A stretch of DNA of 64,000 nt from Sipunculus nudus (lineage: Eukaryota > Annelida > Sipuncula > Golfingiida > Sipunculidae): assembly GCA_026874595.1 (NCBI GenBank), contig CM049315.1, positions 19,613,664 through 19,677,663 on the forward strand, given 5' to 3'. Both the position numbers and the translations under genes were made by a program. Under the pieces are notes generated by a model that saw nothing but the letters and a program-made list of their open reading frames with translations, searched no databases and had not been told where the DNA came from. Positions 2,432 to 40,481 of this stretch are shown piece by piece. How positions within the stretch are numbered: the stretch's first letter is position 1; every line of letters begins with the position of its first letter.

Positions 2432-2531
2432 AATGCCAAGACACGAGCAGAGATCGAGGGACTTGTACAGCAACATGATGTGGACGCTCTGCGCCATCGG
2501 CTCTGTCACAGAATGGAGTTTGGCACTGCAG
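2432..2531 (+). CDS. PGM2: PGM2-family exon, N-terminal (residues 1-34)
   Basis: The acceptor is TTTACAG and the donor GCAG|GTATTTTG. The exon opens in phase 0 with NAKTRAEIEGLV and ends on RMEFGTAG, the hallmark start of domain 1 in PGM2 proteins. The last base is the first base of the Gly codon shared with the next exon. Reading continues intronically to 2635, but only the part up to 2531 matches the family. Confidence 0.93.
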
Positions 2532-2980: not shown

Positions 2981-3048
2981 GTCTTCGATCTAAGATGGGA
3001 GCTGGAAATTCCATGATGAATGATCTTACCATCATCCAAACTACACAG
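2981..3048 (+). CDS. PGM2: PGM2-family exon (residues 34-56)
   Basis: The acceptor is TTCTTCAG and the donor ACACAG|GTAACT. It encodes LRSKMGAGNSMMNDLTIIQ, equivalent to the human LRAAMGPGISRMNDLTIIQ segment that forms the early domain-1 active-site strand. Entry is in phase 1 and exit in phase 0. Confidence 0.95.
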
Positions 3049-4066: not shown

Positions 4067-4155
4067 GGTTTCTGGAAATACATTGAGAAGACAAGTCCAG
4101 ATGTGAAGGAGCATGGAGTGGCCATAGGCCATGATGCTAGATACAACAGTAAAAG
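4067..4155 (+). CDS. PGM2: PGM2-family exon (residues 57-86)
   Basis: The acceptor is GGAACCAG and the donor AAAAG|GTCAGT. It encodes GFWKYIEK and then VAIGHDARYNSKR, matching the human stretch with VISFDARAHPSS. Asp-Ala-Arg is the conserved part. Exit is in phase 2, and the Arg codon is completed in the next exon. Confidence 0.93.
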
Positions 4156-4530: not shown

Positions 4531-4930
4531 TTAGCCCAGCTGACTGAAAGTTGTATGAGCCATAGTAGTCACTCTTTGTCCGTTGTTTGTTTGTCCATCC
4601 AGCCATCTGTTAACAGGCACAAATCATAACCACTGGACCTTGAAACTCCATTGAAGTCCATAAAAATCTCACTGGACACCTAAAATTATGTCACTGAGAA
4701 CTATATTCTTTGAGTTACAGAGCCTGTTAAAAATTAAAAAATTCATGCTAAGGCTCCAGTATCTAAATAAATAATATATTGATTTTCATGATTATTTCCA
4801 TGCATATTGATCATGAATTCTTTCATCAGTTCCTGAAGGCTGGTGGTGCCACCTAAATTTTTTTCTCATTTTTTGCCATTATTTTTTCTATTTTTGAGAC
4901 CGTTAAATGAAGCAGTCTTAAGTTTTATCC
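4531..4930 (+). mobile_element. Helentron-like family A, truncated 5' piece
   Basis: It begins TTTAGCCCAGCTGACTGAAAG and continues with a TCTTTGTCCGT-rich stretch, CACAAATCATAACCACTGGACC and GCTGGTGGTGCCACCT, the same order of modules as the copy at 12461. No 3' hairpin end follows, so it is a fragment. The right boundary is approximate. Confidence 0.6.
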
Positions 4931-5149: not shown

Positions 5150-5234
5150 GTTTGCAGCTCTTGCTGCAACCATCTTCTTGAACCAAAATGTTCCAGTGTA
5201 CCTGTTTTCTGAAATTTGTCCGACACCTTTTGTG
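5150..5234 (+). CDS. PGM2: PGM2-family exon (residues 86-114)
   Basis: The acceptor is TGATTTTAG after a T-tract and the donor GTG|GTAAGT. It encodes FAALAATIFLNQNVPVYLF and then SEICPTPFV, equivalent to human FARLAATTFISQGIPVYLF and the TPTPFV turn. Exit is in phase 0. Confidence 0.95.
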
Positions 5235-5778: not shown

Positions 5779-5862
5779 CCATTTTGTGTCACAAAATATG
5801 GTTGTGATTGGGGCATCATGGTGACTGCCTCACATAATCCAAAAGATGACAATGGTTACAAG
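5779..5862 (+). CDS. PGM2: PGM2-family exon with catalytic phosphoserine (residues 115-142)
   Basis: The acceptor is TTTTTTCAG and the donor AAG|GTATGT. This 28-codon exon carries TASHNPK at 5824-5844, the loop whose Ser (residue 132 of the visible product) is phosphorylated in the reaction cycle. It then reads DDNGYK. All expected loop residues are present, so the product should be catalytically competent at this site. Confidence 0.97.
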
Positions 5863-6621
5863 GTATGTGTGCATTTATACTTTGAACAAGCAAATTTGTG
5901 GAATTTATGTCCTCTGCTTCTGCCCCTTGTTATCCCCTGCTTACCCTATCAATATTTTTTAGTTTTTATTGTCCCCTGAAGATGTCTCCACATGTCATAA
6001 TTTTTTTGTTGTGAATTAGGAATCAAAGGGGAATTTTTTGTTTTGTTTTGGAGCTGCTGATCATAAGTTTTGGAACAGAAACTAAAAAAAAACAATCCCT
6101 ATTAAGGTATGCATGAGAAAAATCTTAGACCCTAATTTGTATGAAATCAGATAATATTTAGGAAAGTTATCGCACAGAAATGAAAACTTGATGGACGGAC
6201 AGACAGAAAGACAGCTAGATAGACAGACAGACAAACCCAAATCATTGTTCCACCGTTCCAAGAAGAGGGGAACAAAAAAAAGTATCACCAAGTATACTGC
6301 ATGGCTTTCTATGCTTTAAAACCTATTATAAAGTATACTGCATTCTTATGCAGAGTGACTTGTCTTGGTATCTGTTTTTATAACTAAAACATCACCCAGA
6401 ATAGATGTATCAGTAAACAAGAATCTTTGTTAAAATAGAATATTAAAGTTACTAACCTTGATAAAAACCTGGGCAGATGTGTAAAAGTTACCACCTTCAT
6501 TCACTTGCCTCCCAGATATTTTTTAGTTTTTATAAAATTCTCAGTAATTTATTAAATCTACTTTTGGAATTATTTGTGCTCAAATGTACAACCAGCATAC
6601 AGTGTTTCATATTTTTTCCAG

Positions 6622-6645
6622 GTATATTACAAAACTGGTGCTCAG
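6622..6645 (+). CDS. PGM2: PGM2-family 24-nt micro-exon (residues 143-150)
   Basis: The sequence TTTTTTCCAG|24 nt|GTAAGA encodes VYYKTGAQ. The conserved family sequence VYWDNGAQ needs exactly these eight residues between GYK and IISPHDKGI. Both boundaries are phase 0, so the exon is frame-neutral if skipped. Its identity rests on this match plus strong splice sites on both sides. Confidence 0.93.
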
Positions 6646-7242
6646 GTAAGAATATTAGTTTCTTTATTGCTTCATGTTGTATTTAAAATATTTTTTAAAT
6701 TTTTCATGGACCAGTCCTTAAATATTTTTTTCAGTACCACTTTTCCATTAGGCTGCTGAAGGATTTCCAACATTATGTATTTACTGAGAATCAGGACGGT
6801 GTTGATTGTTTAGGCTGCTGTAAGGTTTTATAAATTGAAATAAAAAAATTTAGCCAAAAGCAATGTAATAACACTGCTACTTAGAGTATAGAAATATTTA
6901 TAATAATAGGAAATTAGGGATTTTAAATGGAAATCCAACATTATAAAAGAAAATCCAGGATTTAAAAGGAACTATAATAAATTGTAGAAGTTGACTCTTC
7001 AAATGTATTGTGCTACTTATAAAAAGAATATAAAGTTTTCTTGATTTATGATCCTGTGTTGAATTATTATTTATCAGAATGTAATACCAAACTTATAAGA
7101 AAGAAAGGAAATATTCAAAGCAGGGTTTATTCCTTTGTCTTATTGTCAAAATGGGAATGTAGGCTCTAATGCTACAATTGTTTCAGTCATTTCATTTCCT
7201 TAAGGCAAGAAATATAACGATTTATGAATGATTATATTTTAG

Positions 7243-7412
7243 ATCATTCCACCTCATGATAAAGGCATTGCTGAACAGATCGAGAAGAACTTAGCACCCT
7301 GGCCAGACTCATGGAACACAGAGGTCGTAGAAGGTCACACACTCAGGAAAGACCCTTACCAGGCAGTATTCTCCAGCTACATGGAGGGGCTTCATAAACT
7401 TTGTAATTTCAA
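7243..7412 (+). CDS. PGM2: PGM2-family exon (residues 151-207)
   Basis: The acceptor is ATTATATTTTAG and the donor TTTCAA|GTGGGT. It encodes IIPPHDKGIAEQIEKNLAPWP, then a variable linker (EVVEGHTLRKDPYQAV) and YMEGLHKLCNFK. HDKGI and the APWP turn match PGM2. It is the longest coding exon seen. Exit is in phase 2. Confidence 0.94.
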
Positions 7413-7830
7413 GTGGGTAACTTGGTGGTTTAAATTATTTTTTACCTGTGTCACATCAATTCTTATATCATTTATTGATATAGGGGAGCACAAACAGTGA
7501 TTAGAAAAATTTGTTTTGGACGGTTCACATAATACAAACACAGATGTCTTTAGCTCAATTCTTAAGTAAAGTACTTTAGAGTATGAATAAAAAAATGAAA
7601 GACAATTTGAATTTTGTTGAGAACCCTCAACTTATTGAAATTTAAAATGTGAATTAACATATTTTTAGTTGTGATATTTTTGGACAGATGGCTAAGACTA
7701 TTATTTAGTGGAAATTGATGTTATGATTATAAAACACAAAACTACACCAAAATATATTGGCTACTTCAATGATTGTAGTAATAAAATAAAAAATATGTCA
7801 ATTAAGAAGTAGTAATATATGAACAGTATT

Positions 7831-9122
7831 TTTAGCTCAGCTGAAGTCATCTGAGCTATAGTGATGTTCCTTCGTCCATCAGCTGTCTGTTTGGTTGTTC
7901 ATTAACAAGGCACATATTGAAACTGTTGGACCTACAAATCCAATATTCAACATACAGTTAGATGTCCCAAAGTTCTCCTCCCAAACCGAAAAACTGGGTC
8001 ATTGTGACTTTGTTCCTTTGAGAAATTAAGGGAAAACCTTAGTTTAAAAAAAAGTCTATTGTTATACATCAAAACTACCCAATATGAAAACCACTGGTGT
8101 TAATGTATTTATGTTTGACATAACTAATCCTGCTTATAGTTCCTATGCACATCCCAAATATTAGGCCAATATTACTTAAGTTGTTGAAGTTATGGGCTCA
8201 AACATAATGCACTTTTGTCAAAAATTAGGAAATATATTCACTAACCTAACAAGATAATTTGATGAACCTAGAGACTTTTTTCAACAAATTATAACATATC
8301 TTTTAAGGATTTACCTTTATTTAATCAATATTTAATTGTATTCTAGAAATTAAAAAAGAATTTCTGTAATTTTGATAAATTTATAATCAAAACGCCAAAA
8401 ACGGTACCTTAAATTTGGCCCAGCTTTGACCATGGCACATTTTTTTTTCTTCTAAACACTATTTCATTTTCACATTATGTAAAAAATTAGGAATTAATCT
8501 TTTAAAATCTGAAATTTGAAAATAAAAGATAAAAATTAGGCTAGAAATTGAATTTTTATTTGGAAGCTTTATTGTATTGACTTGCATTGTCAATCCCTAG
8601 GAAGCCCACTTTTGGTCACTTCAGCCCTGCCTGGGTAACCTTATATTACTTAATAAATGCAACACTGGTTGAGCACCCTTGCTGTCACAGGTGTACAGTA
8701 ATTCTCATATTACCGCCCCCACCCAACCACAACACACAGCAGTATTCACCAAGCATATTGCAATAATTGTTATGGTTTTAACTGAATTTTCTTAATTGTA
8801 AAGCTATTTTCACTCCAATGTACCAAAATGCTTCAGATAGTAATTCAAGGACTAATCCAGGGGTAATGTAGCATGTGTAAAGAAATTAATTTCCTTTTAA
8901 ACAATTTTTAACAAATTAAAATATAATTAAACCTATCAGGGTGCAAAAATTATAATATAGGAGCCAAATTCTTGATAAATAAAGGCACAATTGAGAATTG
9001 TGAATTGAAAAGTTTTATTTTCAGATATTTATTGTTTTGTTATCAAATATATTTTTTTGGTAAAAAAAAATAAATATACTTTTCCAAATTTCATCTGAGT
9101 GACGTGACCAACAGGTCCCTTG
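7831..9122 (+). mobile_element. Helentron-like family A copy 1
   Basis: It starts TTTAGCTCAGCTGA, has a GTCATCTGAGCTATAG hairpin partner, then a TCCGTC/TGTCTG stretch, and ends GAGTGACGTGACC..GGTCCCTTG followed by T. The 3' terminus pairs (GACC/GGTC) as in the other copies. Its 3' half is similar to that of the copy ending at 19416. No coding capacity is seen. Confidence 0.75.
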
Positions 9123-9383: not shown

Positions 9384-9507
9384 ACAGCTGAACATGAACA
9401 CCAGCCTCAACTTTACATACACAGCTATGCATGGTGTGGGTTATGCTGCTGTACAAGAAGCTGCCAAAGTCTTCAACTTCAGGCCATTTATCCCTGTCAA
9501 AGAACAG
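9384..9507 (+). CDS. PGM2: PGM2-family exon (residues 207-248)
   Basis: The acceptor is TTTTCCTGCAG and the donor GAACAG|GTAATT. It encodes TYTAMHGVGYAAVQEAAKVF, equivalent to the human VHTSVHGVGHSFVQSAFKAF, and then VKEQ. The His-Gly-Val-Gly motif opens domain 2. The first base completes a Lys codon. Confidence 0.94.
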
Positions 9508-11876: not shown

Positions 11877-11942
11877 GTGGAACCTGACCCTGCATTCCCA
11901 ACTGTGGTGTTTCCAAATCCAGAGGAGGGGAGAAGTGCTCTG
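11877..11942 (+). CDS. PGM2: PGM2-family exon (residues 249-270)
   Basis: The acceptor is CTAACCAG and the donor CTG|GTGAGT. This 22-codon exon encodes VEPDPAFPTVVFPNPEEGRS, matching human DPDPEFPTVKYPNPEEGKG, the linker before the metal loop. Both ends are phase 0. Confidence 0.95.
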
Positions 11943-17059: not shown

Positions 17060-17157
17060 GACCTGTCCATCAAAACTGCAGAGGAGAATAACAGCACTGT
17101 GATACTGGCCAACGATCCGGACGCCGACCGTCTGGCCCTCGCTGAGAAACAACCAAG
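17060..17157 (+). CDS. PGM2: PGM2-family exon with metal-binding loop (residues 271-303)
   Basis: The acceptor is TCACTTGTCAG and the donor CCAAG|GTAAAC. It encodes [26 protein letters not shown] lies at 17114-17131, and its aspartates hold the catalytic magnesium. Human PGM2 reads [19 protein letters not shown]. Exit is in phase 2 (AG|), which is compatible with both copies of exon 11. Confidence 0.97.
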
Positions 17158-20087: not shown

Positions 20088-20188
20088 TGGCAGCTGGAAG
20101 TGCTTCACGGGTAATGAGACTGGCACACTCTTGTGCTGGTGGATGTGTTTTTTACAAACCATGCAAAACCACCGTCACAAATACAGTG
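20088..20188 (+). CDS. PGM2: PGM2-family exon 11a (alternative version)
   Basis: The acceptor is ATCATTTCAG and the donor CAGTG|GTAAGA. It encodes SGSWKCFTGNETGTLL then CWWMCFLQ, corresponding to human SGEWRVFSGNELGALL. It opens in phase 2 and leaves in phase 1, exactly as does the second version at 29746. Its 101 nt against 95 gives two more codons. It is open throughout. The usual Gly of LLGWW is Cys here. Including both versions would disturb the frame (1 nt left over against 2 needed), so only one can be used per mRNA. Confidence 0.85.
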
Positions 20189-20402
20189 GTAAGAGGCGCC
20201 CCCTGCAGGTGAAGGACACTAAACCTTTCCTTAACTTGCAATTTTGGGGCACAAAACCCCTCCTAAACACTGTGTGTACATTTACATTAAATTAATTTTT
20301 CTTTTACATTGCATACAAGATTACTTATGCTTTGTTTGTTATTGCTTGCCGAAAAATTTTTAATTTCAGCAAATAATTTGGTCAGTTCCATATGTCTGTT
20401 TG

Positions 20403-21936
20403 TTGCTAGCCAGAAATCTTCGATTTTGGCAGGCATGTTCGTCAGTTCTGTATGTCACTTGTCTGTCTGTTTGTTTTTATTTGTTTGATTGTCTACACTG
20501 TCCTGGCCACAGTTTTGCAGCAATAGCTTTGAATCTCGTACAGTTGGTATATAATCATTATCCCTCAGAGCCAATTGTTTTTGGTTAACATTGCTTCATG
20601 GTTTAAGGTAAAAAAAAAAGGTATGGAAAATTGTTTTTGCTTGATAACTTTGTCAAATATTATCATAGTGACATAAATTGTAGCTGGTTATGTTCATCGG
20701 ATATTCCCGTTTTTCCTGCTGCACAAGCTCTTCATTCTTCTGTTGCCATGGTAACACATTTAAGGGTTAAAGCTTGATAATTTGAAAATATTCATGTTAT
20801 TTTTTCTATGTCAGGTTTCAATCTTTGTAATGTTCAGACCACTTGATTTGATAAATTGCAAGTCTCGACAGATCTCCCACCATATCTTGTCAGATGAGAA
20901 AAAAAAGAGATTTATCAGAAATGTGTATAGTCGGCAATTTTTTAAGCTAGACAGGTCTAGTTTTCTGCATTTTGTAACATTTAGCCAGCTTGACATAACA
21001 GAACTGCTAATCGCACCAAAAGTCGCACCTTATCTCATCTAATGAGAAAAAAAAAAAGATTTCACAGAAATGCTTATAACTGGGCGACTCATAAAGCTAG
21101 ACAGGTTTAGTTTTCAGCATTTAGTAACATTTTGTCAGCTCGACATGATTAATTGCAAGTTTCAACAGATCTAGCACCAAACATTTAAGTGCTTGCAAGG
21201 TCTTAGTTTTCTGGATTCAGTAACATTCCACAAGCTACTGTGGTTGCCTTTTTGTTCGCGAGGATTTTATTTTCGCGATATTCGCGAATGTGATATAATC
21301 GCGAATATGAAACCCTCGGGAATAAGCTGCCCTTTTATTGAGGATGAACAAGAGGATATTATGCATCTGCAGGTTCTGCACAAATGAATTCGTTATCACA
21401 CCTCTGGAAACATAGTTTGTAAATCAACAACATAATCTGTGGACGGTATCACCACCTTCTCATGCAAACACTCAATGATAAATGTCAAAACATCGATTAT
21501 GAAACAGGTTATAATACTATGACTATAACAGTAATGAGCTAGGTATTATGGGATTTATATTTATTTTATTATAAATGTAAATATTAATGTACATAGATTT
21601 CATAGATTGTGGCGCAATCACGAAAAAGGAACATTCAAAATTAAGAAATAGCGAAATTTCAGCCTCACCAATATGAAGCCAACCACAGTATACTTAACAT
21701 ATCTGCACACCTCGCATGGTTCTCATTAAATAAGAATTTACAAAATAATGGCAAGTTTTGACACTAGAAAGGTCAGCAGCTATACATGTCAACATACATA
21801 AACTTATTATTTGTTTCTGCTTCCAACAACATTGCTCATTCATATGACTGTTTCAACATCTTCCCCTGTCTGTCAGTCTCTCCCTCTGTCTGTTTTATTT
21901 CAATTTCTGGCAAGCGCTTGACCTCTGGTCATCTGG
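20403..21936 (+). mobile_element. Helentron-like family C, inner copy
   Basis: The 5' end is GCTAGCCAGAAATCTTCG with partner TTTTGGCAGGC, then a GTCTGTCTGTTTG stretch. The 3' end is TTTCTGGCAAGCGCTTGACC..GGTCATCTGG. Two diverged units of about 160 bp lie at 20870-21180 (landmark AAGCTAGACAGGT). The TA-type MITE at 21236 sits inside. Confidence 0.65.
21236..21690. mobile_element. TA-flanked MITE with CTGTGGTTG ends, copy 1
   Basis: The ends TACTGTGGTTGCC and GGC..CAACCACAGTA (AAGCCAACCACAGTA) are inverted repeats with TA at both outer edges, as in Tc1/mariner-type insertions. The subterminal part is rich in TTCGCGA/TCGCGAA. It is about 455 bp with no transposase reading frame. A relative lies at 63108. 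Confidence 0.75.
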
Positions 21937-22020
21937 TTATTTTATGTCTTGTTTATTTGTTTGTCTGCACTCCACTGGCTATGATCTTGTTGCAATCAAC
22001 TTGAAACCTATTTGATTGAG

Positions 22021-25000
22021 TTTAATTAGCTCAGCTGACTCTAAGTTATCTGAGCTATAGAAATGGTCCTTTTTCCGTAGTCCCTCTGGCAGGCTCGCCA
22101 TCCTTTAACAGGGCACATTTTGAAATAGTTGGACGTACAAATCCAAAATTTAGCATTCAGTAAGATGTCCCTAAAATCTCCTTCCATACTGAAACTTGGG
22201 TCGCTAGGACTTTATTCCTTTGAGATATTAAGGAAACATTAAGGATTTGGATCTTTATATTCAAAAGTGATAAAATATTAAGATCTAATGTAAGTGCATA
22301 TTAACATGTTAAGATTTAATAAGATATAAGTACTTTGTAGCATTTCATTCATATCTCTTAAAGAAGGATGGGCCTTGATATGAATAACACTGATAACTTA
22401 ATCAGGAATATTGGGCAAACTTCCATGGTATTAATTTTTAGCTCATATGAACATATATTTAACCATTGAAAACTTTTTTAATACAAACATTTTTAGCTCA
22501 GCTGACTATAAGTGATCTGAGCTATAGTCGTGGTCCATTGTCCGTCGTCCGTCTGTCTGTCTGTCTGTCCGTCCGTCTGTCCGGATGTCCGTCCGTAAGA
22601 CTGGCACATTTCAACACCATTGGACCTACGAATTTGAAACTTGCCATACAGTTAGATGTCCCAAAAATCTCCTACCATGCTGAAAATTGGGTCAATAGGA
22701 CTTCGTTCCTTCGAGATATTAAGGAAAAACCTTAATTTTTTATCAGAAATCTATTTTCACACTTCAGGACTGCCTAATATCAAAACCACTCATCTGGTTT
22801 TCTTCATATTTACCATAAATATTCCTCTATATAGTTCCTATGTACATGTTAGAAATTAAGTCAGTATTATTTAATTTAAAAAAGTTATGGGCCAAAACAT
22901 AATGGACTTTGTAAAAAAATCAGGAAAGATATTTGGTCACTTAAGACTAAAAGTGTTAAAGGTAGGGACTTTTTTCAGTAATACAACTTTAATTGATCAA
23001 AATTAAATTGTATACCAAAAATTAGATCAAAATCTGTTAAATTTTTTTAAATATTGGCAAAAATATAAAATTGGTACCTTAAATTTTGCCCAAGTTAGAC
23101 CATGGCACGTTTTTTTTCCTGTTAGTACTGTGGATTTAATTTTCACAGCATGTTTTTGTTAGCATTTTGTCTGTTAACACCAAAAATTTGAAACCAGTTG
23201 ATCAAAAACTGTAGATTTTATTCAAGTTTTCAAGCACCATGTCACATCAAGTTTACATCAAGCTAGTGTTATGCAGTTTGCTAGAGCTCAGCTCCCCAGC
23301 TTTAAGTTCCTTAAGTTTAGCATACAGTTAGATGTCTCCAAAATCCCCTACCATGCCAAGAATTTTATCACTAGGACTTAATTACTTCGAAATATAAATG
23401 AAAAACTTCATTTTTCCATTAAAAACCCATTGTTACACTAAGACTGCCTAATATCAAAACCACTGATCTGACTTTGATCATATATAATATGCATATTTTT
23501 CTATACATTTGCTATGCACATGCCAGAAATGAGGTCAGTATTGTGTAATTGTTTGAAGTTATGGGCCCAAACATAATGCACTTTTTAATAAATCAAGAAA
23601 TATATTTACTCCCTTAACAAGAGGATTGCTGAAGCTAGAGATTTTTTGTCAGGGATGTAACATTATTTAATCAAGATTCAATTGAATACCAAAAATAAGT
23701 TCTGAATTTTTCAAATTTTATAAGTTATTAGTATAAATATAAAATTAGTACCTTAAATTTTGCCCAACTTTGACCATGGCACGTTTGTTTCCTGAGAGCA
23801 CTGTTGATATAATTTTCATATCATGCACACATAAGGATTTCATCTTTGTAGGTTAGAAAGCTGAAAGAAATTGGCCAAATATTGTAGCTCTTATTAATGT
23901 TTATATGAGACCATGTCAGACCCAGGCTTAATCCAACCCCTCTTCAGTCACCTGTATGTTGACCTTGTTGACCTTTCATCAGATTAAGAATGCTTGAGTG
24001 AAGCATACACTGGGGCAGCCAGGCAGCTAATGCCCAGCAACAGTTGATACAGGTGTCCAACCCAACTCATCTAGTGGTTGTTTTGAAAAACAACATAACA
24101 ATAAACAATAAATTAATAATTTTGTATTGGTTTTTTTTATAACAAATTAAAGAAAAATTAATAGAAAAGGAATTTGTTAGTTGATGAGTAACAGAAAATT
24201 AACTTGCAGTTACTGATGATTTAAGAATCTAGTATGGATGGATAGAATGTCAATGTCAATGTTAGTCCAAATAACACCATGCAGTCACCTATGGTATTTT
24301 TCAGTGAAATTTTAATGATAAGAAAATAAATCATATTATTCATTACTAATCATTAGGGATCATATGAAGGAAATTAATGTTAGACAAAGATGCAGTTGAT
24401 AATATTAATCTAGATTCCTACTGTGTCTAGTGTGTAGATTGATGTGAAAGTAGTCCAAAGTGAATATATTACATAATTGTCATTCATTTTTGTAATATAA
24501 ATAAAAGCCATAAAACCAGGTACTCATGATCATTATTTAAATTTGTGAATTTTGTATATTCTGGATTCTCAACATCTTTGTTTGGCTGAAACTGAATAAA
24601 TACTAGACATGGTGCGAATGCTTTGCAGATGTATTTGAATACGAATATGAATATGTACTGCATTAAAAAATTTTATTGCATTTATAGAATCGGAATTCAG
24701 GTAAAAATGAAAGTATTTGAATACCAGGTGCAGATACTTTGAAAATGTATTCATGAATGCATTCATGAATATATTCTATAATATTATTTCAGTAATCATT
24801 TCAGTTATATTTTATTTTAAAAAATCATATGATTTTCTTATTATTTTTTTTTAATAAAAATTATATTGGCACAATATTTGTTATTAAATTTTAATAAATA
24901 GTCTTTTATAATATGTGCTGCTTATAAGTTATATAGCCAAGTCAAAATCTGTGTGACAACAGCACTCCATTTGTTAATAAAATAAATGAAATCAATCCTC

Positions 25001-25556
25001 TTCCCTGTCTCCAGAGATACTATCAAAATCATACATAAGCTAAACACCAACAACTCATAATAAAGCTTATATTTATTACCACACAAAACAAGCATGTGCC
25101 TCTTTCCCAAATCATATATTTTATCATATATAACAGCTGAGCGCTGTGACCCATGGGTCCCTTGTTTTGTTTATGAAATGTATCCTTTCATGCAACACTT
25201 AGGCCCATTTTTTCCTTATTGCATCAGTAAATGGTTTCAGGCCACAAATTTTGTTTATTACTCATTGCAAATGCAATTTATACATCATTTGCTTGTTTTA
25301 ACATGCTTATTATATTTTTGTTTATGCTTATTTGAATTTTTTACAGCTTGATATTTCAGTTGATAAATTAATGTTTATTACTATACTTTAGCTCATGTCC
25401 ATTATTCTGTAATTTACAGGGTTTCATTTTAGCAGGGCCATTTCTTCTGAGCTTACCAAATGCTAATATATATGAAATACCAAAAGAAATAAGTATATTT
25501 TGTATTTGCTAAAATTTTCAAAAATTCAGCTGAGTGACATGACCCATGGGTCCCTT
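22021..25556 (+). mobile_element. Helentron-like family A, outer copy split by another A copy
   Basis: A 5' end (TTAGCTCAGCTGACTCTAAG with ATCTGAGCT) lies at 22027. Its body stops about 450 bp later, where a second complete A element begins at 22491. A spare 3' end (CAGCTGAGTGACATGACCCATGGGTCCCTTG) sits at 25527-25556. Pairing the two gives one element interrupted by another. This is inference from order. Confidence 0.5.
22491..25164 (+). mobile_element. Helentron-like family A, inner copy
   Basis: The 5' end is TTTTAGCTCAGCTGACTATAAG with GATCTGAGCT, then about 50 bp of GTCCGTCTGTC repeats. The 3' end is ACAGCTGAGCGCTGTGACCCATGGGTCCCTTG followed by TTTT. The segment from about 24165 to the end is the counterpart of 10350-11621. 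A second internal start-like stretch near 23283 suggests an internal duplication. Confidence 0.75.
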
Positions 25557-26065
25557 GTTTTAATAGGTCAAATTTAAAGAAGGGTCATCAATACATGTCA
25601 AAATCCTATTTCCCTCATAGTTTTGGCAATATTTGTCCTATTTCCACAAACTAGGCTCATTTCCTTCCTCTTCCTTATCGCTCATTTGTTTGACTGTTTC
25701 CATATTATTTCTGGCAAGCGCTCACCCTGCGGTCATCTAGTGTTTTTCAGTTTACCATAAAACATTTAAATTGTTCATGGTAATTATATATAGATGATTA
25801 TTTTTATTTTTTCTTCTTTGTGTATGATTGACCCAGCTGAGTAAAAAATAAAGAAACTTGTTAAATTTTTTAAGTTAATTATTGAAATTTGTCATCATTA
25901 ATATCTCTACCCATGTTCTATTCATATAGATATCTATGTTAAGACAAATCCTATTTATTTTGCAGATGACCATTTATGGAATTTTTTTATTATGTTAACA
26001 TCTTGTGACAAAATGTACGCTTAAAAACTTGTGAAAAAAAATTTAATAGCATTTTGTTGTACTTG

Positions 26066-28403
26066 TTGCTTGCCGGAATCAAAGATTTCGGCAAGCATAT
26101 TGGTCAGTTGCGTATGTCTGTTTGTCTGTTTGTCTGTTTGTCTGTTTGTCTGTTTGTTTGTCATCACTCTCCTGGCCACAATTTTGCCACAATCACCTTG
26201 AAACTTACAGGGATAATGGAAAACAAAATTTCTAGGTGCCCTATTGTTTTTGGTTAATATAGGTCAACGATTAAGGTCAAGGTCATCGAAAAACCTCGAA
26301 ATTTTATTTTCCTCATAACTTAGTCAAAAATGGTCGTATCAACCTCATTCTAAGATCATTTTGTTCGTCTTTCATTTCCCCATATCATGGTATGATCAAG
26401 TTTTGTTGACTTTGTGTCACCTTGTCAGTATGTCTGTCTGTTCCTCTGTTGTTGTCAATTTTGACAACGGCCTTGATGTTCTGTCTGACATTTAGTACAG
26501 TACAGGCCACAATTTTGCAGCAATCACCTTGAAACTTTCAGAGATGATGAAGAATTAATTTTATAAGTGCCCTATTGTTTTTGGTCAAAATAGGACAAAG
26601 GTAAAGGTCAAGGTCAATAAAACTTCTCAAAACGGTTTTTTCTTCATATCTTTGTGACTATTTGTCGTATCTACTTCAACGATAGCTCATTTTAATCGTC
26701 ATTCCAAGGCCTGTCATCTGGTGTGTAGCTGATTCAAATTTGCCGTAACCATAGTTACAAATTTTGGGGGAAAATCATGATATTCGAAAATAAGGGGTCT
26801 TATTTTTCAAACTTTGTCAATTTTAAAGCTAGAATGATCTAGTTTTTTGCATCAAGTAGCATTCAACTAGTACTACAAGATTTTATTACAAGTCTTGCAG
26901 TATCTCGTAAAATATCTCGTGAATAGAGATATTTCGAGATTTCATTCATCTTGCGCCAAAGGCCACATTATTGCAGGAATCTTTTTGAAACTGACATATT
27001 ATAAGTCCTACACTAGTATCTCGAAATTGTTTTTTCATTTTTTGAATAGGGCCGCTAGGGGGCGCTGGATGCGAACCTCCCGAACATATCATATTTTGGC
27101 CATATCTCCAAAATTTTAAGCCTCAATAACATAAACTACAGCTTATTTTCTTCCTCTGGGTCTTCTCCATAACCTAGTGTAGTCATCTGGTCACACTTTT
27201 GTGACACTTTGTCAGTGTGTCTGTCTGTTTGTCAGTTGTCCTCAAATTCGCCTGCTTGCTCTTGCGTCTCACATATAGCATTCTACAGGCCACAGTTTTG
27301 AAAGAATCCTTTTGAAACTATAACATCTTAAGTCTTACACTAATATCTCTAGACCAATTTTTCATTTTCCGGATATGGCCGCTAGGGGGCGCTGAACTCG
27401 AACCTCTCCCAACATATCATGCTTTGGCAATATCTCCAAAACTATAAACCTCAGTAACATAAACTGTAGCTTTTTTCTTCCTTTGGGTCTTCTCCATAAC
27501 CTGGAGTAGTCATCTGGACTCAATCTTGAATCACTTTGTCAGTGTTTTCGTCTGTTTGTCAGTTGTCCTCAAATTCGCCTGCTTGTTGGTTCTTGCGTCT
27601 CACATATAGCATTCTATAGGCCACAGTTTTGACGGAATCCTTTTGAAACTATTACATCTTATGTCTTACACTAATTTCTAAAAATTAATTTTTCATTTTC
27701 CTGATATGGCCACTAGTGGGCGCTGCACACGACCCTCACACACATACCATTGTATTGGCCATATCTCTACACCCAAAGCCTCAGTTACATAAGCTATAGC
27801 TTATTTTCTTCCTTTGAGTCTTCTCCATAATCTGATTAAGGCATATGGTTTCAATCTTCTGTCACTTTGTCAGTGTGTCCATCTGTTTGTCCGTTATCCT
27901 CAAAGTCGCCTGCTTGCTGGTTCTTACGCCTTACATATAGCATTCTACAGGCCACAGCTTTGACGGAAACCTTTTGAAACTGGGACATCTCATGTCATAT
28001 ACTAATAATACGAATCGCATTTGTCGTCTTCGGAATATGTCTGCTAGAGGGCGCTACAGTCGAGCCTCCCAAGTATATCATTAATTCGCCATACCTCCAA
28101 AACTATAAATCTAAATTACATAAATTATAACTCATTTTCTTCCTTTGAATCTTCTCAATCACCAGGTTATGTCATCTGGTGTCAATCTTGTCTCACAAAG
28201 TCAGTATGTCTGTCTGTTCGTCTTTTATTGTCAGCTTTGCCTGCTTGCCTGTTCTTTTGTCTCATATGACATTCTACGGGCCACATATTCTCAGCAATGT
28301 CCCTGAGAGTCATTCCATTAATAGAAAACTGACAATATGTTCTGTCTGTCCGTCTGTGTTTTACTTCCGATTTCCGGCAAGCGTTCGACCTATGGTCGTC
28401 TAG
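26066..28403 (+). mobile_element. Helentron-like family C, complete copy with 328-bp tandem core
   Basis: It starts TTGCTTGCCGGAATC, with GATTTCGGCAAGC pairing back as a hairpin, then (GTCTGTTT)n. The core has about four units of 325-330 bp with landmarks GTCAGTGTGTCTGTCTG, CATTCTACAGGCCACAG and CGCTAGGGGGCGCT. It ends GATTTCCGGCAAGCGTTCGACCTATGGTCGTCTAG followed by TTT, where CGACC/GGTCG is the 3' hairpin and CTAG the terminus. GCTTGCCGGAA and TTCCGGCAAGC form an 11-bp inverted pair. No replicase or helicase frame is present, so it is non-autonomous. Confidence 0.82.
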
Positions 28404-28930
28404 TTTAAAAATCTTTTTTATTACTATAAGATTTATAAGTTATGACAAATCCTATTTATCTTGCTAGATGACCATCATTGGACTTTTTTAACTTTTATCG
28501 TTTATGAACAAAAAAATCCTTTAAAAAATTCACTTTTTTAGTTTTTAGTATTTTTTTGTACCGATTATCATCTTTTGATTAAATTAAAATTATAATGCTC
28601 ACACAAAAGATTTTGCCTAAAACTGGAGGGAATTGATGTATGGCCATCATTGGTTTTAATGTCATGTATTATACTCTGTACAATATGTTGATTGATCTAA
28701 TAGCATGCTGAAGGAATGATTTATTTCTTTTACCCATTCTTTGAAGGCCATGTTTTAATGGCTTTGTTGAAATACATGTGTATTTCAATGTATCTTGTAA
28801 GTGTACTGTATATACCTACTGTTCATGTAAGTCTGGTCATTGTTTGTTATATTGTACTGTTTATTGTACCTTCTGCACAAAATATCTACATCACATAATG
28901 AATTTTTGGCACATTGCATACTGTGATGTA

Positions 28931-29610
28931 GTTGAGACCAATTTAAAGACTGAGACCATGGGATCTTAGACTGCAAGACTGAGACCATGGGATCAGAAAC
29001 TGCAAGACTGAGACCATGGGATCTGAGATTGCAAGACTGAGACCATAGGATCTTAGACTGCAAGACTGAGACCATGGGATCAGAGACTGCAAGACTGAGA
29101 CCATGGGATCTGAGACTGCAAGACTGAGACCATGGGATCTGAGACTGCAAGACTGAGACCATTGGATCTGAGACTGCAAGACTGAAACCATGGGTTCTGA
29201 GACTGCAAGACTTTGACCATGGGATCTGAGACTGCAAGATTGAGACCATGGGATCTAAGACTGCAAGACTGAGACAATGGGATCAGAAACTGCAAGACTG
29301 AGACCATGGGATCTGAGACTGCAAGACTGAAACCATTGGATCTGAGACTGCAAGACTGAGACCATGGGATCTGAGACTGCAAGACTGAAACCATTGGATC
29401 TGAGACTGCAAGACTGAGACCATGGGATCTGAGACTGCAAGACTGAAACCTTTGGTTCTGAGACTGCTAGGCTTTGACCATGGGATCTGAGACTGCAAGA
29501 CTGAGACCATGGGATCTGAGACTGCAAGACTGATACCATGGAATCTGAGACTGCAAGACTAAGACCATTGGATCAGAGGCTGAGACTGCAAGACTGAAAC
29601 CATTGGATCC
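28931..29610 (+). repeat. 29-bp minisatellite array (about 23 copies)
   Basis: Tandem copies of a 29-bp unit built from GAGACTGCAAGACTGAGACC and ATGGGATCT, with scattered single changes. It ends 135 bp before exon 11b. The minus strand of the unit has no stop in any frame, so three overlapping long ORFs (up to 154 codons) appear there. I regard these as by-products of the repeat. Confidence 0.95.
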
Positions 29611-29745
29611 AGACATGAAAATCCAGATTTGAAGATTCTTGAGATAGACACACCCATGTGATACAAAAATTTGTTGTTTTTTTTCCTGACTTTTTCATCA
29701 TACATAAGCATTATGGTTCCTATTTTGTGACTCTTCATACTTCAG

Positions 29746-29840
29746 TGGTTCGTGGCATGTGTTTAGCGGGAATGAAACAGGAGCCCTTCTAGGTTGGTGG
29801 GCTTGGCTCAAGTATAGCCAGAACAGTAGGACTACACAGG
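29746..29840 (+). CDS. PGM2: PGM2-family exon 11b (alternative version, more canonical)
   Basis: The acceptor is CATACTTCAG and the donor CACAGG|GTAAGC. It encodes SGSWHVFSGNETGALLGWW then AWLKYSQN, closer to vertebrate PGM2 (VFSGNELGALLGWW) than 11a. Entry is in phase 2 and exit in phase 1, interchangeable with exon 11a. Most identical residues shared with 11a use different synonymous codons, so both copies look old and protein-constrained. This is likely the default exon. Confidence 0.92.
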
Positions 29841-29944: not shown

Positions 29945-31180
29945 CTACAATCAACATGGTGTTCCAGGAGAAGTGTGTTGAGCAACAGAAGCCTCTCTTC
30001 ATGGTATTTGTCCACCTCACCAAGGCTTTTGATTATGTCAGTCAGTCTGATCTCCTGTTGCTGTCCTCTGAAGATGGTAAAAACCATTGAGTTTCATAAC
30101 AACCTGAGGGCAGTAGTTCAGTTCAAAGGCTCTCGATCAGAAGGGTTCCTGATAGTGTGGAGTTAAGCAAGGATGTGTTCCTGCCATTACACTGTTTGGT
30201 GTGTTTTTCTCCGCCCTCTTATGCTGTGCTTTCCTTTATGCTGCAGGTGTACTACTGTTTAACCGCAGCTCCAGCAAACTGTTTAACCTGGCTAGACAAT
30301 GTGCTTAAACCAAAGTGCAAAGGGTAATTGTGTGTGAGCTATGGTATGCAGATGCTGCTGCCTTTGTGTCTCACTCAGAAACAGATCTACAAGCAATGTG
30401 CTCAGCCTTTGCAACTGCATGTGAGGAATTTGGCCTGAGAATAAGCATTAAGAAGACAGTGGTCCTAGCTAATCCAGCCTCACTGTCACCTATCATCAAG
30501 ATAAACAATGTCGTTTTTGCACTGGTAAATAAGTTCACATATTTAAACTGTACTGTAAACAGCACCAACAGCATGGAAGAAAATTGAACATGTGCATCGG
30601 CAAGGCCTCCACCATCTTTGGCAATGGCAGATTGAGCAAGCAGGTGTGGAACAAAAAGCACCTTTCTCTGTTGCTAAAAGTCAAGGTTTCCTCCTAAGCA
30701 CTCTTCTTGTTTTCAAGTGAGGCATGGCCAAGTTACTACAAACATGAACACAGGTTAAACTCCTCCCACATTCACTGTCTTTGCCAAATCATGGGCGTGA
30801 CCTGGAAAGATCATGTCCAAAATTCAGTCATGCTGGAGAAAACATTATCCTCTGATTTGTTTACACTGCTAGGCTCCCACTGCCTTCGCTGAGCTGGAAT
30901 GTATGTCCAGAGGATGACACCAACCTACCGAAAGCAATCTCTTTAGATTGAGAACTGACTAATGCTCAAAGGCTAAGAGGAAGGCCCTGCCTAAGGTACA
31001 AAGATGCCCTGAAACATGATATGGCTGCATTCCAAATCGATGCTGACAACTGGGAGAATATAGCCACCAACAGATATTCCTGGTGCTTTGCCATCACTGA
31101 AGGATAGAAGACCTCCCAGGCTTCTTACCTGGACTCACTGGAGGAGAGATGCTTGAAGCTTCATTCTGATCGTTGCCTGT
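29945..31180 (+). pseudogene. Decayed non-LTR retrotransposon (LINE) reverse transcriptase
   Basis: Pieces in several frames follow the order of a LINE RT. VFQEKCVEQQKPLF and FVHLTKAFDYVS (motif A, usual Asp replaced by His) lie near 29960-30040. GVKQGCVLP is recognisable across a stop near 30165. Then come LWYADAAAFVSHSETDLQ (usual YADD now YADA, about 30339) and LRISIKKTVVLANPAS. SEAWPSYYKHEHRL and the C-terminal region with a DNWENIATNRYSWC match follow near 31045. Both catalytic positions are changed and there are several stops and frameshifts, so it is dead. The 5' end is missing. The clade is not assigned. Confidence 0.85.
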
Positions 31181-32372: not shown

Positions 32373-32455
32373 GCAAGGATGTGTACACACTGGCCAGTAC
32401 TGTCTCTTCCAAAATACTACGCTCAATATCTGTAAAGGAAGGATTTAACTTTGTG
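32373..32455 (+). CDS. PGM2: PGM2-family exon 12 (residues 337-364)
   Basis: The acceptor is TTCTTTATCAG and the donor GTG|GTGAGT. It encodes KDVYTLASTVSSKILRSISV then KEGFNFV, matching human STVSSKILRAIALKEGFHF. It opens in phase 1 (G|GC), the phase left by either exon 11 version. Confidence 0.96.
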
Positions 32456-34050: not shown

Positions 34051-34144
34051 GAAACCTTAACCGGCTTCAAGTGGATGGGAAGCAAGGCATATGAACTGAT
34101 CCAGCAGGGGAAGACTGTCATCTTTGCGTTTGAGGAAGCAATAG
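34051..34144 (+). CDS. PGM2: PGM2-family exon 13 with sugar-contact motif (residues 365-396)
   Basis: The acceptor is TTGCCTAG and the donor AATAG|GTATGT. It encodes ETLTGFKWMGSKAYELIQQG then KTVIFAFEEAIG. FEEAIG is the domain-3 loop that contacts the sugar, and GFKWMG is diagnostic of PGM2 and PGM2L1. Exit is in phase 1. Confidence 0.96.
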
Positions 34145-36542: not shown

Positions 36543-36672
36543 GGTTTATGTGTGGTAATAACGTGTTGGACAAAGATGGCGTCAGTGCGGCTGTAGTGTG
36601 TGCTGAGATGGCAACGTACCTGAATGATCAGGGAATCTCTATCAAGCAACAGCTGGAGAACATCTATGACAA
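36543..36672 (+). CDS. PGM2: PGM2-family exon 14 (residues 396-439)
   Basis: The acceptor is TGATCTCTAG and the donor GACAA|GTAAGT. It encodes GFMCGNNVLDKDGVSAAVV then CAEMATYLNDQGISIKQQLE. LDKDGVSAAVV is invariant in PGM2-type enzymes. FMCG and AEMATYL are nearer to vertebrate PGM2L1 than to PGM2. Exit is in phase 2. Confidence 0.96.
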
Positions 36673-38259: not shown

Positions 38260-38362
38260 GTATGGTTATCATTATTCTCTGAACTCCTACTTCATCTGTC
38301 ATGACCCTGATGTGATCAATAACATGTTTGAACGTCTTAGAAACTACTCTGCTGAAGAAAAG
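38260..38362 (+). CDS. PGM2: PGM2-family exon 15 (residues 439-473)
   Basis: The acceptor is CCCTGTTTCAG and the donor GAAAAG|GTTAGT. It encodes YGYHYSLNSYFICHD then PDVINNMFERLRNY, matching human YGYHITKASYFICHD and LFENLRNY. Exit is in phase 0. Confidence 0.95.
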
Positions 38363-38681: not shown

Positions 38682-38768
38682 TACCCCACCTCTTGTGGAC
38701 CATACAAAATAAAGTACATCCGTGACTTGACAACAGGATATGATAACAGGCAACCTGACAATAAAGCT
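38682..38768 (+). CDS. PGM2: PGM2-family exon 16 (residues 474-502)
   Basis: The acceptor is ATAACTGCAG and the donor GCT|GTAAGT. It encodes YPTSCGPYKIKYIRDLTTGY then DNRQPDNKA, equivalent to human IRDLTTGYDDSQPDKKA at the start of domain 4. Both ends are phase 0. Confidence 0.95.
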
Positions 38769-39686: not shown

Positions 39687-39820
39687 ATTTTGCCAGTGAG
39701 CCCTTCAAGTCAGATGATAACCTTCACTTTTGAGAATGGCTGTGAAGCAACGCTGCGCACATCTGGTACTGAACCCAAAATTAAGTACTACACAGAATTC
39801 TGTGCTGATCCTGCTGAAGG
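39687..39820 (+). CDS. PGM2: PGM2-family exon 17 with phosphate-binding loop (residues 503-547)
   Basis: The acceptor is TTTTCCTAAG and the donor GAAGG|GTAAGT. It encodes [18 protein letters not shown] then [28 protein letters not shown] begins at 39756 and is the domain-4 loop that grips the substrate phosphate. Exit is in phase 2. Confidence 0.97.
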
Positions 39821-40375: not shown

Positions 40376-40481
40376 ACAAAGCCGAGATGATGTTAGGGCA
40401 GAGTTGAAGAAAATGGTAAACTGCATTATCGAAGAATTTTTCCAACCAGATAAAAATAAGCTGATTTGGCGAAGTCAGTGA
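40376..40481 (+). CDS. PGM2: PGM2-family last coding exon 18 (residues 547-581, stop)
   Basis: The acceptor is TTCATTAAAG. It encodes QSRDDVRAELKKMVNCIIEE then FFQPDKNKLIWRSQ and ends with TGA at 40479-40481. FFQP matches human PGM2, and the terminal LIWRS tail resembles PGM2L1. The exon continues as untranslated sequence to a strong donor at 40512. Confidence 0.95.

What the first reader, a model, noticed from the sequence alone, without database searches (positions are those of the whole stretch)
20088..29840. Duplicated exon in the PGM2-family gene, probably mutually exclusive alternative splicing
Two exons (20088-20188 and 29746-29840) encode versions of the same segment, SGSW..F.GNETG..LL.WW, just after the metal loop. 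Both have good splice sites and no stops, and both have identical entry and exit phases (2 in, 1 out). Using both would break the frame. Shared residues are mostly encoded by different synonymous codons, which points to old duplication with protein-level constraint. Copy 11a replaces the Gly of LLGWW by Cys and differs in the following helix, so the two isoforms could differ in activity or stability. I know of no described alternative exon at this place in the family.
Basis: partly seen in the sequence, partly recalled or inferred. Interest (0 to 1): 0.78.

Follow-up and report, generated by a model that had tools for sequence, protein, structure and literature searches.

The report
Duplicated alternative exon in PGM2
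A sugar-phosphate enzyme gene of a probable bivalve carries two old, protein-constrained versions of one exon next to its metal-binding site, and reading-frame rules allow only one at a time, so the animal probably makes two versions of the enzyme by swapping exons; no RNA evidence was available.

Summary
The window carries 18 of the 19 coding-exon positions of a PGM2-family gene; position 12 exists twice, 12a (20088-20188, 101 nt) and 12b (29746-29840, 95 nt). Exactly one gives full proteins of 607 or 605 residues; both or neither gives an early stop. In the alignable core 13 of 18 residues agree, yet 9 of the 10 agreeing codons that could differ synonymously do differ; omega is 0.02-0.03 and omega = 1 is rejected (2dlnL 21-24). 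12a fits the conserved positions of 42 bacterial relatives, and DNA search of the 1.43 Gb assembly found only itself. As positive control, coq-2 of this genome carries a pair that I take for the published exclusive exons 6e/6a, with the same signature. Against: the 12a acceptor is the weakest in the gene; no RNA or related animal genome could be examined; recent loss of 12a use is not excluded. Searches found no report of this pair, but a skipped exon is reported in mouse Pgm2, place not seen. Best reading: an ancient mutually exclusive exon pair beside the metal loop; a new member of a known kind.

The parts
20088..20188 (+). Exon 12a (diverged copy), 101 nt, SGSWKCFTGNETGTLLCWWMCFLQTMQNHRHKYSG
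   Evidence: genome searches found no other good copy
29746..29840 (+). Exon 12b (canonical copy), 95 nt, SGSWHVFSGNETGALLGWWAWLKYSQNSRTTQG
17060..17157 (+). Exon 11, shared upstream exon with metal loop DPDADR; its donor is the second weakest of the 17 other donors
32373..32455 (+). Exon 13, shared downstream exon
2432..2531 (+). Exon 2 (exon 1 lies outside the window, about 28.4 kb before it, in locus L009)
2981..3048 (+). Exon 3
4067..4155 (+). Exon 4
5150..5234 (+). Exon 5
5779..5862 (+). Exon 6, holds TASHNP (the catalytic serine loop, name recalled)
6622..6645 (+). Exon 7 (24 nt)
7243..7416 (+). Exon 8
9388..9507 (+). Exon 9
11877..11942 (+). Exon 10
   Evidence: start corrected by one base in 32
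34051..34144 (+). Exon 14, sugar-binding loop FAFEEA
36543..36672 (+). Exon 15
38260..38362 (+). Exon 16
38682..38768 (+). Exon 17
39687..39820 (+). Exon 18
40376..40481 (+). Exon 19, last coding exon with stop

Best explanation
Exons 12a and 12b are an ancient tandem exon duplication inside a PGM2-family gene, kept as mutually exclusive alternatives. Each message takes one copy. Both lengths leave remainder 2 on division by 3, so exactly one copy keeps the frame; messages with both or neither meet a stop in exon 12b or 13, several junctions before the end, and would be expected to be destroyed by nonsense-mediated decay. The choice swaps 33 or 35 residues from just after the metal loop to the first part of domain III, and so would tune the enzyme beside its active site. 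Shown: copies, phases, frame logic, protein-level constraint. Inferred: splicing of both, decay of wrong forms, change of activity.
For: Frame logic. Core: 13 of 18 residues identical; of these 10 have synonymous alternatives and 9 of the 10 use different codons; differences fall in 14 of 18 third positions against 9 of 36 first and second positions (Fisher p 0.00035). Codon model: omega 0.017-0.020 and 0.027, 2dlnL against omega = 1 of 21-24. None of 6625 stop-free neutral simulations (20000 run, 13375 gained a stop) kept 13 of 18 residues; maximum 10. Family: 12a has the Gly present in 42 of 42 bacterial relatives, Asn where 41 of 42 have Asn or Asp, Gly where 35 of 42 have Gly, and Lys where 27 of 42 have Arg or Lys and 12b has His. 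DNA search of the assembly with 12a and flanks found only itself. Of the 14 other exons that the recalled probe detected, none showed a second copy in the window. Positive control: in the same genome coq-2 holds two like exons, taken for 6e/6a, of 131 and 134 nt (both remainder 2), omega 0.025, 2dlnL 30.
Against: No transcript was seen. The 12a acceptor is the weakest of the gene, and 449 of 972 AG sites in 12-32 kb score as high (364 of 972 for 12b); within 60 nt the only yUnAy motif is at -47, and AGs lie at -31, -23 and -21. The tails after WW cannot be aligned with confidence and were left out. At three sites 12b and not 12a has the residue common among relatives; the Cys of LLCWW is in 0 of 42. 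No competing RNA pairing was found near the exons, so no active exclusion mechanism is shown. Flanks of the coq-2 control pair are marginally alike (10 and 15 of 200 shuffles reach the score), those of PGM2 are not (57 and 75 of 200). The codon test tolerates a short recent neutral period of 12a.
Confidence: 0.7

Rival explanations
1. 12a was once a working alternative exon but recently fell out of use; it is a young relic that has not yet gathered stops.
For: Weakest acceptor of the gene; with 6 neutral substitutions in the 54-nt core, 58% of simulations still stay open with at least 13 of 18 residues, 28% with 8, 9% with 10; codon likelihood falls only slowly with a short neutral phase.
Against: Open frame over all 33 codons and intact AG/GT borders; the donor is good: only 13 of 1036 GT sites in 12-32 kb, true donors included, score as high.
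Confidence: 0.15
2. 12a is mainly a regulatory (poison) exon: adding it to 12b brings a stop and lowers enzyme level.
For: Inclusion of both gives a stop at 29790.
Against: A poison exon needs no conserved residues; 12a shows strong protein-level constraint and fits the family.
Confidence: 0.07
3. 12a is the remnant of a second, tandem PGM2 gene or of an insertion, unconnected with splicing of this gene.
For: Intron flanks of the copies are not alike, so they do not show that the exon was copied here. A wider search for PGM2 paralogues in the genome did not complete.
Against: No second copy of the 14 other exons detected by the probe; 12a lies on the same strand between exons 11 and 13 with matching phases; no other good copy in the genome.
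Confidence: 0.05
4. 12a is a chance open stretch or an assembly artefact.
For: None found.
Against: E 2.5e-4 in the window with a recalled human probe, E 0.007 against 12b in 1.43 Gb; stop-free neutral simulations never reach the likeness.
Confidence: 0.01

Closest known systems
coq-2 exons 6a/6e of nematodes, flatworms, annelids and molluscs (PMC7434440, passages seen)
   Same: Two homologous internal exons of almost equal length, exactly one used. In this genome the copy that I take for 6e lies upstream of the one taken for 6a, as diverged 12a lies upstream of 12b; same codon signature.
   Different: Splicing and function of coq-2 are proven there by RNA and by exon deletion; unrelated enzyme; copies about 3.4 kb apart here against 9.6 kb in PGM2.
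AOX exon 10 of the oyster Crassostrea virginica (PMC5589949, abstract seen)
   Same: Mollusc metabolic enzyme; first copy diverged, second copy conserved; one copy per message.
   Different: Last exon; messages proven; shift under air exposure shown. In this genome I saw only one hit for the end of the AOX profile.
PGM1 tandem duplicated exon (PMC9741552, passages; PMC5570346, passages)
   Same: Same enzyme superfamily; duplicated exon used as alternatives, one form in fast muscle.
   Different: Another gene; recalled and from no call: the PGM1 exons are first exons. In PMC9741552 the term PGM occurs three times, for PGM1 and PGM5 only.
Novel skipped exon in mouse Pgm2 (PMC8975553, passages)
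   Same: An alternative exon in a gene of this name, included more in glutamatergic neurons.
   Different: Described as a skipped exon, not as one of a pair; its place in the gene was not in the passages that I saw, and mouse Pgm1/Pgm2 names have been exchanged in the past (recalled).

Membership tests
PGM2-type phosphosugar mutase (alpha-D-phosphohexomutase superfamily) | Domains I-III of the superfamily above the curated cut-off | tested here: met
   PF02878, PF02879, PF02880 all above cut-off for both isoforms
PGM2-type phosphosugar mutase (alpha-D-phosphohexomutase superfamily) | PGM2/2L1 metal loop DPDADR and sugar loop FAFEE without following Ser (PGM2 rather than 2L1) | tested here: met
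   DPDADR and FAFEEA in the assembled protein; criteria from passages of PMC5570346
PGM2-type phosphosugar mutase (alpha-D-phosphohexomutase superfamily) | Phosphopentomutase activity | not testable with these tools
   needs assay
Mutually exclusive tandem-duplicated exons | Homologous neighbouring exons at one place of the gene, same phases | tested here: met
Mutually exclusive tandem-duplicated exons | Use of both or neither breaks the frame | tested here: met
Mutually exclusive tandem-duplicated exons | Both copies under protein-level constraint | tested here: met
   with a reservation for the last stretch of time and for the unaligned tails
Mutually exclusive tandem-duplicated exons | Messages holding each copy, none or few holding both | not testable with these tools
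   no RNA data
Mutually exclusive tandem-duplicated exons | Usable splice sites on both copies | tested here: inconclusive
   AG/GT present; donors ordinary; both acceptors weak, 12a weakest
Exclusive exons ruled by competing RNA pairing | Docking and selector stretches that can pair | tested here: inconclusive
   Of 15 flank pairs (300 nt each, 40 single-base shuffles) the strongest is z -2.0; of 65 inverted repeats in 17-33 kb the 25 longest were shown, 24 of them in one AT array
Exclusive exons ruled by steric or U2/U12 incompatibility | Very short gap between copies or U12-type sites | tested here: not met
   gap of 9557 nt; GTAAGA and GTAAGC donors

The most novel reading that the evidence does not exclude
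The swap gives two functionally distinct PGM2 enzymes, and belongs with the coq-2 pair to a set of exon switches by which a facultatively anaerobic, symbiont-bearing mollusc resets central metabolism without new genes; 12a would change substrate choice (pentose against hexose phosphate or bisphosphate synthesis) at the domain II/III junction.
Probability: 0.12. Interest if true: 0.7.

Novelty: new member of a known kind. Interest (0 to 1): 0.45.

Why it matters
If both exons are used, one gene yields two forms of a phosphosugar mutase that differ next to the metal site. That gives a natural experiment on what the domain II/III junction does in PGM2, for which PMC5570346 listed no crystal structure in 2017 (passages), and adds another metabolic enzyme, after coq-2 and AOX, to those varied by exon swapping in molluscs.

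Tried and rejected
Genome-wide look for other 12a-like places: two weak hits (L004 with a stop, L005 without) show no further PGM2 sequence in their 3-kb loci and were judged chance. Flank likeness as a clock: 57 of 200 and 75 of 200 shuffles reached the observed score. Competing RNA pairing: nothing found, weak test. AOX as a control: no doubled end exon seen. The two exon peptides against solved structures: no hit for either; isoform b gave 27. First scan of bacterial genomes with isoform b: 5 pattern matches, no relative; the second, with a three-row alignment (one row recalled), gave 42 loci, and 42 of 42 cover the segment. Paper searches for PGM2 or phosphoglucomutase with exclusive or duplicated exons or with bivalves (listings, 9 papers in all, none in 74 and 75) showed nothing on this exon pair; one listed paper, on mouse Pgm2, was looked into. 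Searches on exclusive exons in molluscs gave the precedents cited (listings).

Full report
What was checked. With a human PGM2 sequence recalled from memory as a probe, and by reading frames in the gaps, I located the other exons and rebuilt the gene: 19 coding-exon positions, of which 18 lie in the window from 2432 to 40481, counting the doubled one once; exon 1 lies about 28 kb before the window. The protein is 55% identical to the recalled human PGM2 (329 of 597 columns). Both isoforms match the three domains of the phosphoglucomutase superfamily. The protein has the DPDADR metal loop and the FAFEEA sugar loop which, by the passages I saw of PMC5570346, point to PGM2 rather than PGM2L1.

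Frame logic. Exon 12a has 101 nt, exon 12b 95 nt. One copy alone gives 607 or 605 residues to the normal stop. Both copies give a stop at 29790; neither gives a stop at 32446. Exclusivity is thus enforced at least at the level of usable messages. That wrong messages decay is inferred.

Constraint. In the 18 alignable codons after the split serine, 13 residues agree. Ten of these have synonymous alternatives and nine use another codon, including a serine written AGC in one copy and TCG in the other. Differences sit in 14 of 18 third positions and 9 of 36 others. A codon model gives omega 0.017-0.020 with omega = 1 rejected at 2dlnL 21.9-23.9 (three kappa values, base frequencies of the gene), or omega 0.027 and 20.9 with other base frequencies, and 0.021 and 22.5 without the serine. 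The time estimate runs to its bound, so only 'old' can be said. A model with 12a neutral all its life and 12b at omega 0.05 fits worse (lnL -134.0 against -126.6 at kappa 1.5), but a short neutral end phase is not rejected. In 20000 neutral simulations 13375 gained a stop and none of the 6625 others kept 13 of 18 residues (maximum 10).

Family view. In 42 of 42 bacterial relatives fetched by an alignment search the segment can be read, one of them (L041) with a poor alignment. The Gly of GN is present in 42 of 42, Asn or Asp after it in 41, the next conserved Gly in 35 (Ala in 7). 12a keeps all of these. It has Lys where 27 of 42 have Arg or Lys and 12b has His, and Thr where 9 have Thr and 4 Ser. 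On the other side 12b has the Val, the Ala (21 of 42, Thr 3) and the Gly of LLGWW (Gly 15, Leu 10, Ala 8, Ser 2, gap 7, Cys 0) where 12a departs. In the solved archaeal relative 2f7l the aligned stretch reads GDRSGTLLSYW, with Thr where 12a has Thr and Ser where 12a has Cys. So each copy keeps some residues of the relatives that the other lacks, as expected if both evolved long under constraint. The Pfam hits place the exon between the end of domain II (residue 326) and the early part of domain III (hit starts at residue 361 for isoform a and 358 for b, profile position 18 and 17), right after the metal loop.

Positive control. PMC7434440 (passages) shows that coq-2 exons 6a and 6e are mutually exclusive in helminths, annelids and molluscs. 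I found a coq-2 gene on the same contig of this assembly, fetched it and found two like exons: C10:12260552-12260682 and C10:12257067-12257200, minus strand, 131 and 134 nt, both remainder 2. I take the upstream one for 6e and the downstream one for 6a by their place and likeness to a recalled human COQ2; I did not compare them with the published exons. In 35 aligned codons 23 residues agree, 13 of 19 free codons differ, omega 0.025, 2dlnL 30. I left out the unalignable middle of that pair (35 of 43 and 44 codons used), as I left out the tails of the PGM2 pair (18 of 33 and 31). The PGM2 pair therefore looks like a pair of a proven kind in the same genome. That coq-2 is spliced so in this species was not tested. 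One difference: the flanks of the coq-2 copies are marginally alike (10 and 15 of 200 shuffles reach the score), those of the PGM2 copies are not (57 and 75 of 200).

Splice sites. A small matrix from the other exons of this gene (17 donors, 17 acceptors) puts the 12a donor above 5 of 17 and the 12b donor above 8 of 17; the 12a acceptor is below all 17, and the 12b acceptor is above only 1; the exon 11 donor is the second weakest of its 17. The acceptor matrix discriminates poorly: 449 of 972 AGs in 12-32 kb reach the score of 12a and 364 that of 12b. Weak sites around both copies are common in regulated exons (established knowledge, not tested), but for 12a alone they also fit decline.

How exclusion could work. 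Steric hindrance is unlikely with 9.6 kb between the copies; donors are of the ordinary type; I saw no competing pairing. The likeliest is choice by splicing factors at weak sites plus removal of wrong messages. This is inference.

Novelty. Exclusive duplicated exons are a known kind. I found no such pair described for PGM2 in my searches of the held library, which lacks most subscription journals. PGM1 of the same superfamily has one. Human PGM2 has alternative transcripts that are called mostly truncations (PMC5570346, passage), and a novel skipped exon is reported in mouse Pgm2 (PMC8975553, passages); its place was not in the passages that I saw. Hence: new member of a known kind. The odds stay as in the first version; the mouse exon is of another type as described.

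Host. The assembly has 1.43 Gb in 153 contigs. It also holds bacterial-looking contigs with near-identical genes. Together with AOX and the coq-2 pair this fits a symbiont-bearing bivalve, but the species was not identified.

Noticed in passing
G000 contigs C61-C90 (loci L061-L083): The host assembly holds many small contigs with intact intronless UbiA genes: 12 places of one kind (best aligned stretches of the 3.7-kb loci 98.7-99.8% alike, none identical) and at least 12 of a second kind (11 fetched, 96.5-99.3% alike); seven contigs carry both. They look like about a dozen co-existing strains of one bacterial symbiont (inference).
   Followed up: partly
L084 complement 8052-8182 and 4567-4700 (G000:C10:12260552-12260682 and 12257067-12257200, minus strand): coq-2 of the host carries two like exons, taken for 6e and 6a, which suggests that the animal can make rhodoquinone (inference).
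   Followed up: yes
intron of coq-2, positions about 6226-8200 of the reverse complement of L084+L085: A minisatellite of about 47-nt units runs up to a coq-2 exon, and its units resemble the acceptor and start of that exon when translated.
   Followed up: no
L018 (JADFKH010000038.1): A contig of a bacterial MAG encodes an uninterrupted PGM2 with 51% identity to this animal protein, against about 27-36% for the other 41 relatives: possible gene transfer or mis-binned sequence.
   Followed up: no
window 29970-30040: Just after exon 12b the intron reads like a fragment of a LINE-type reverse transcriptase (FMVFVHLTKAFDYV), read by eye; the likeness is recalled, not searched.
   Followed up: no
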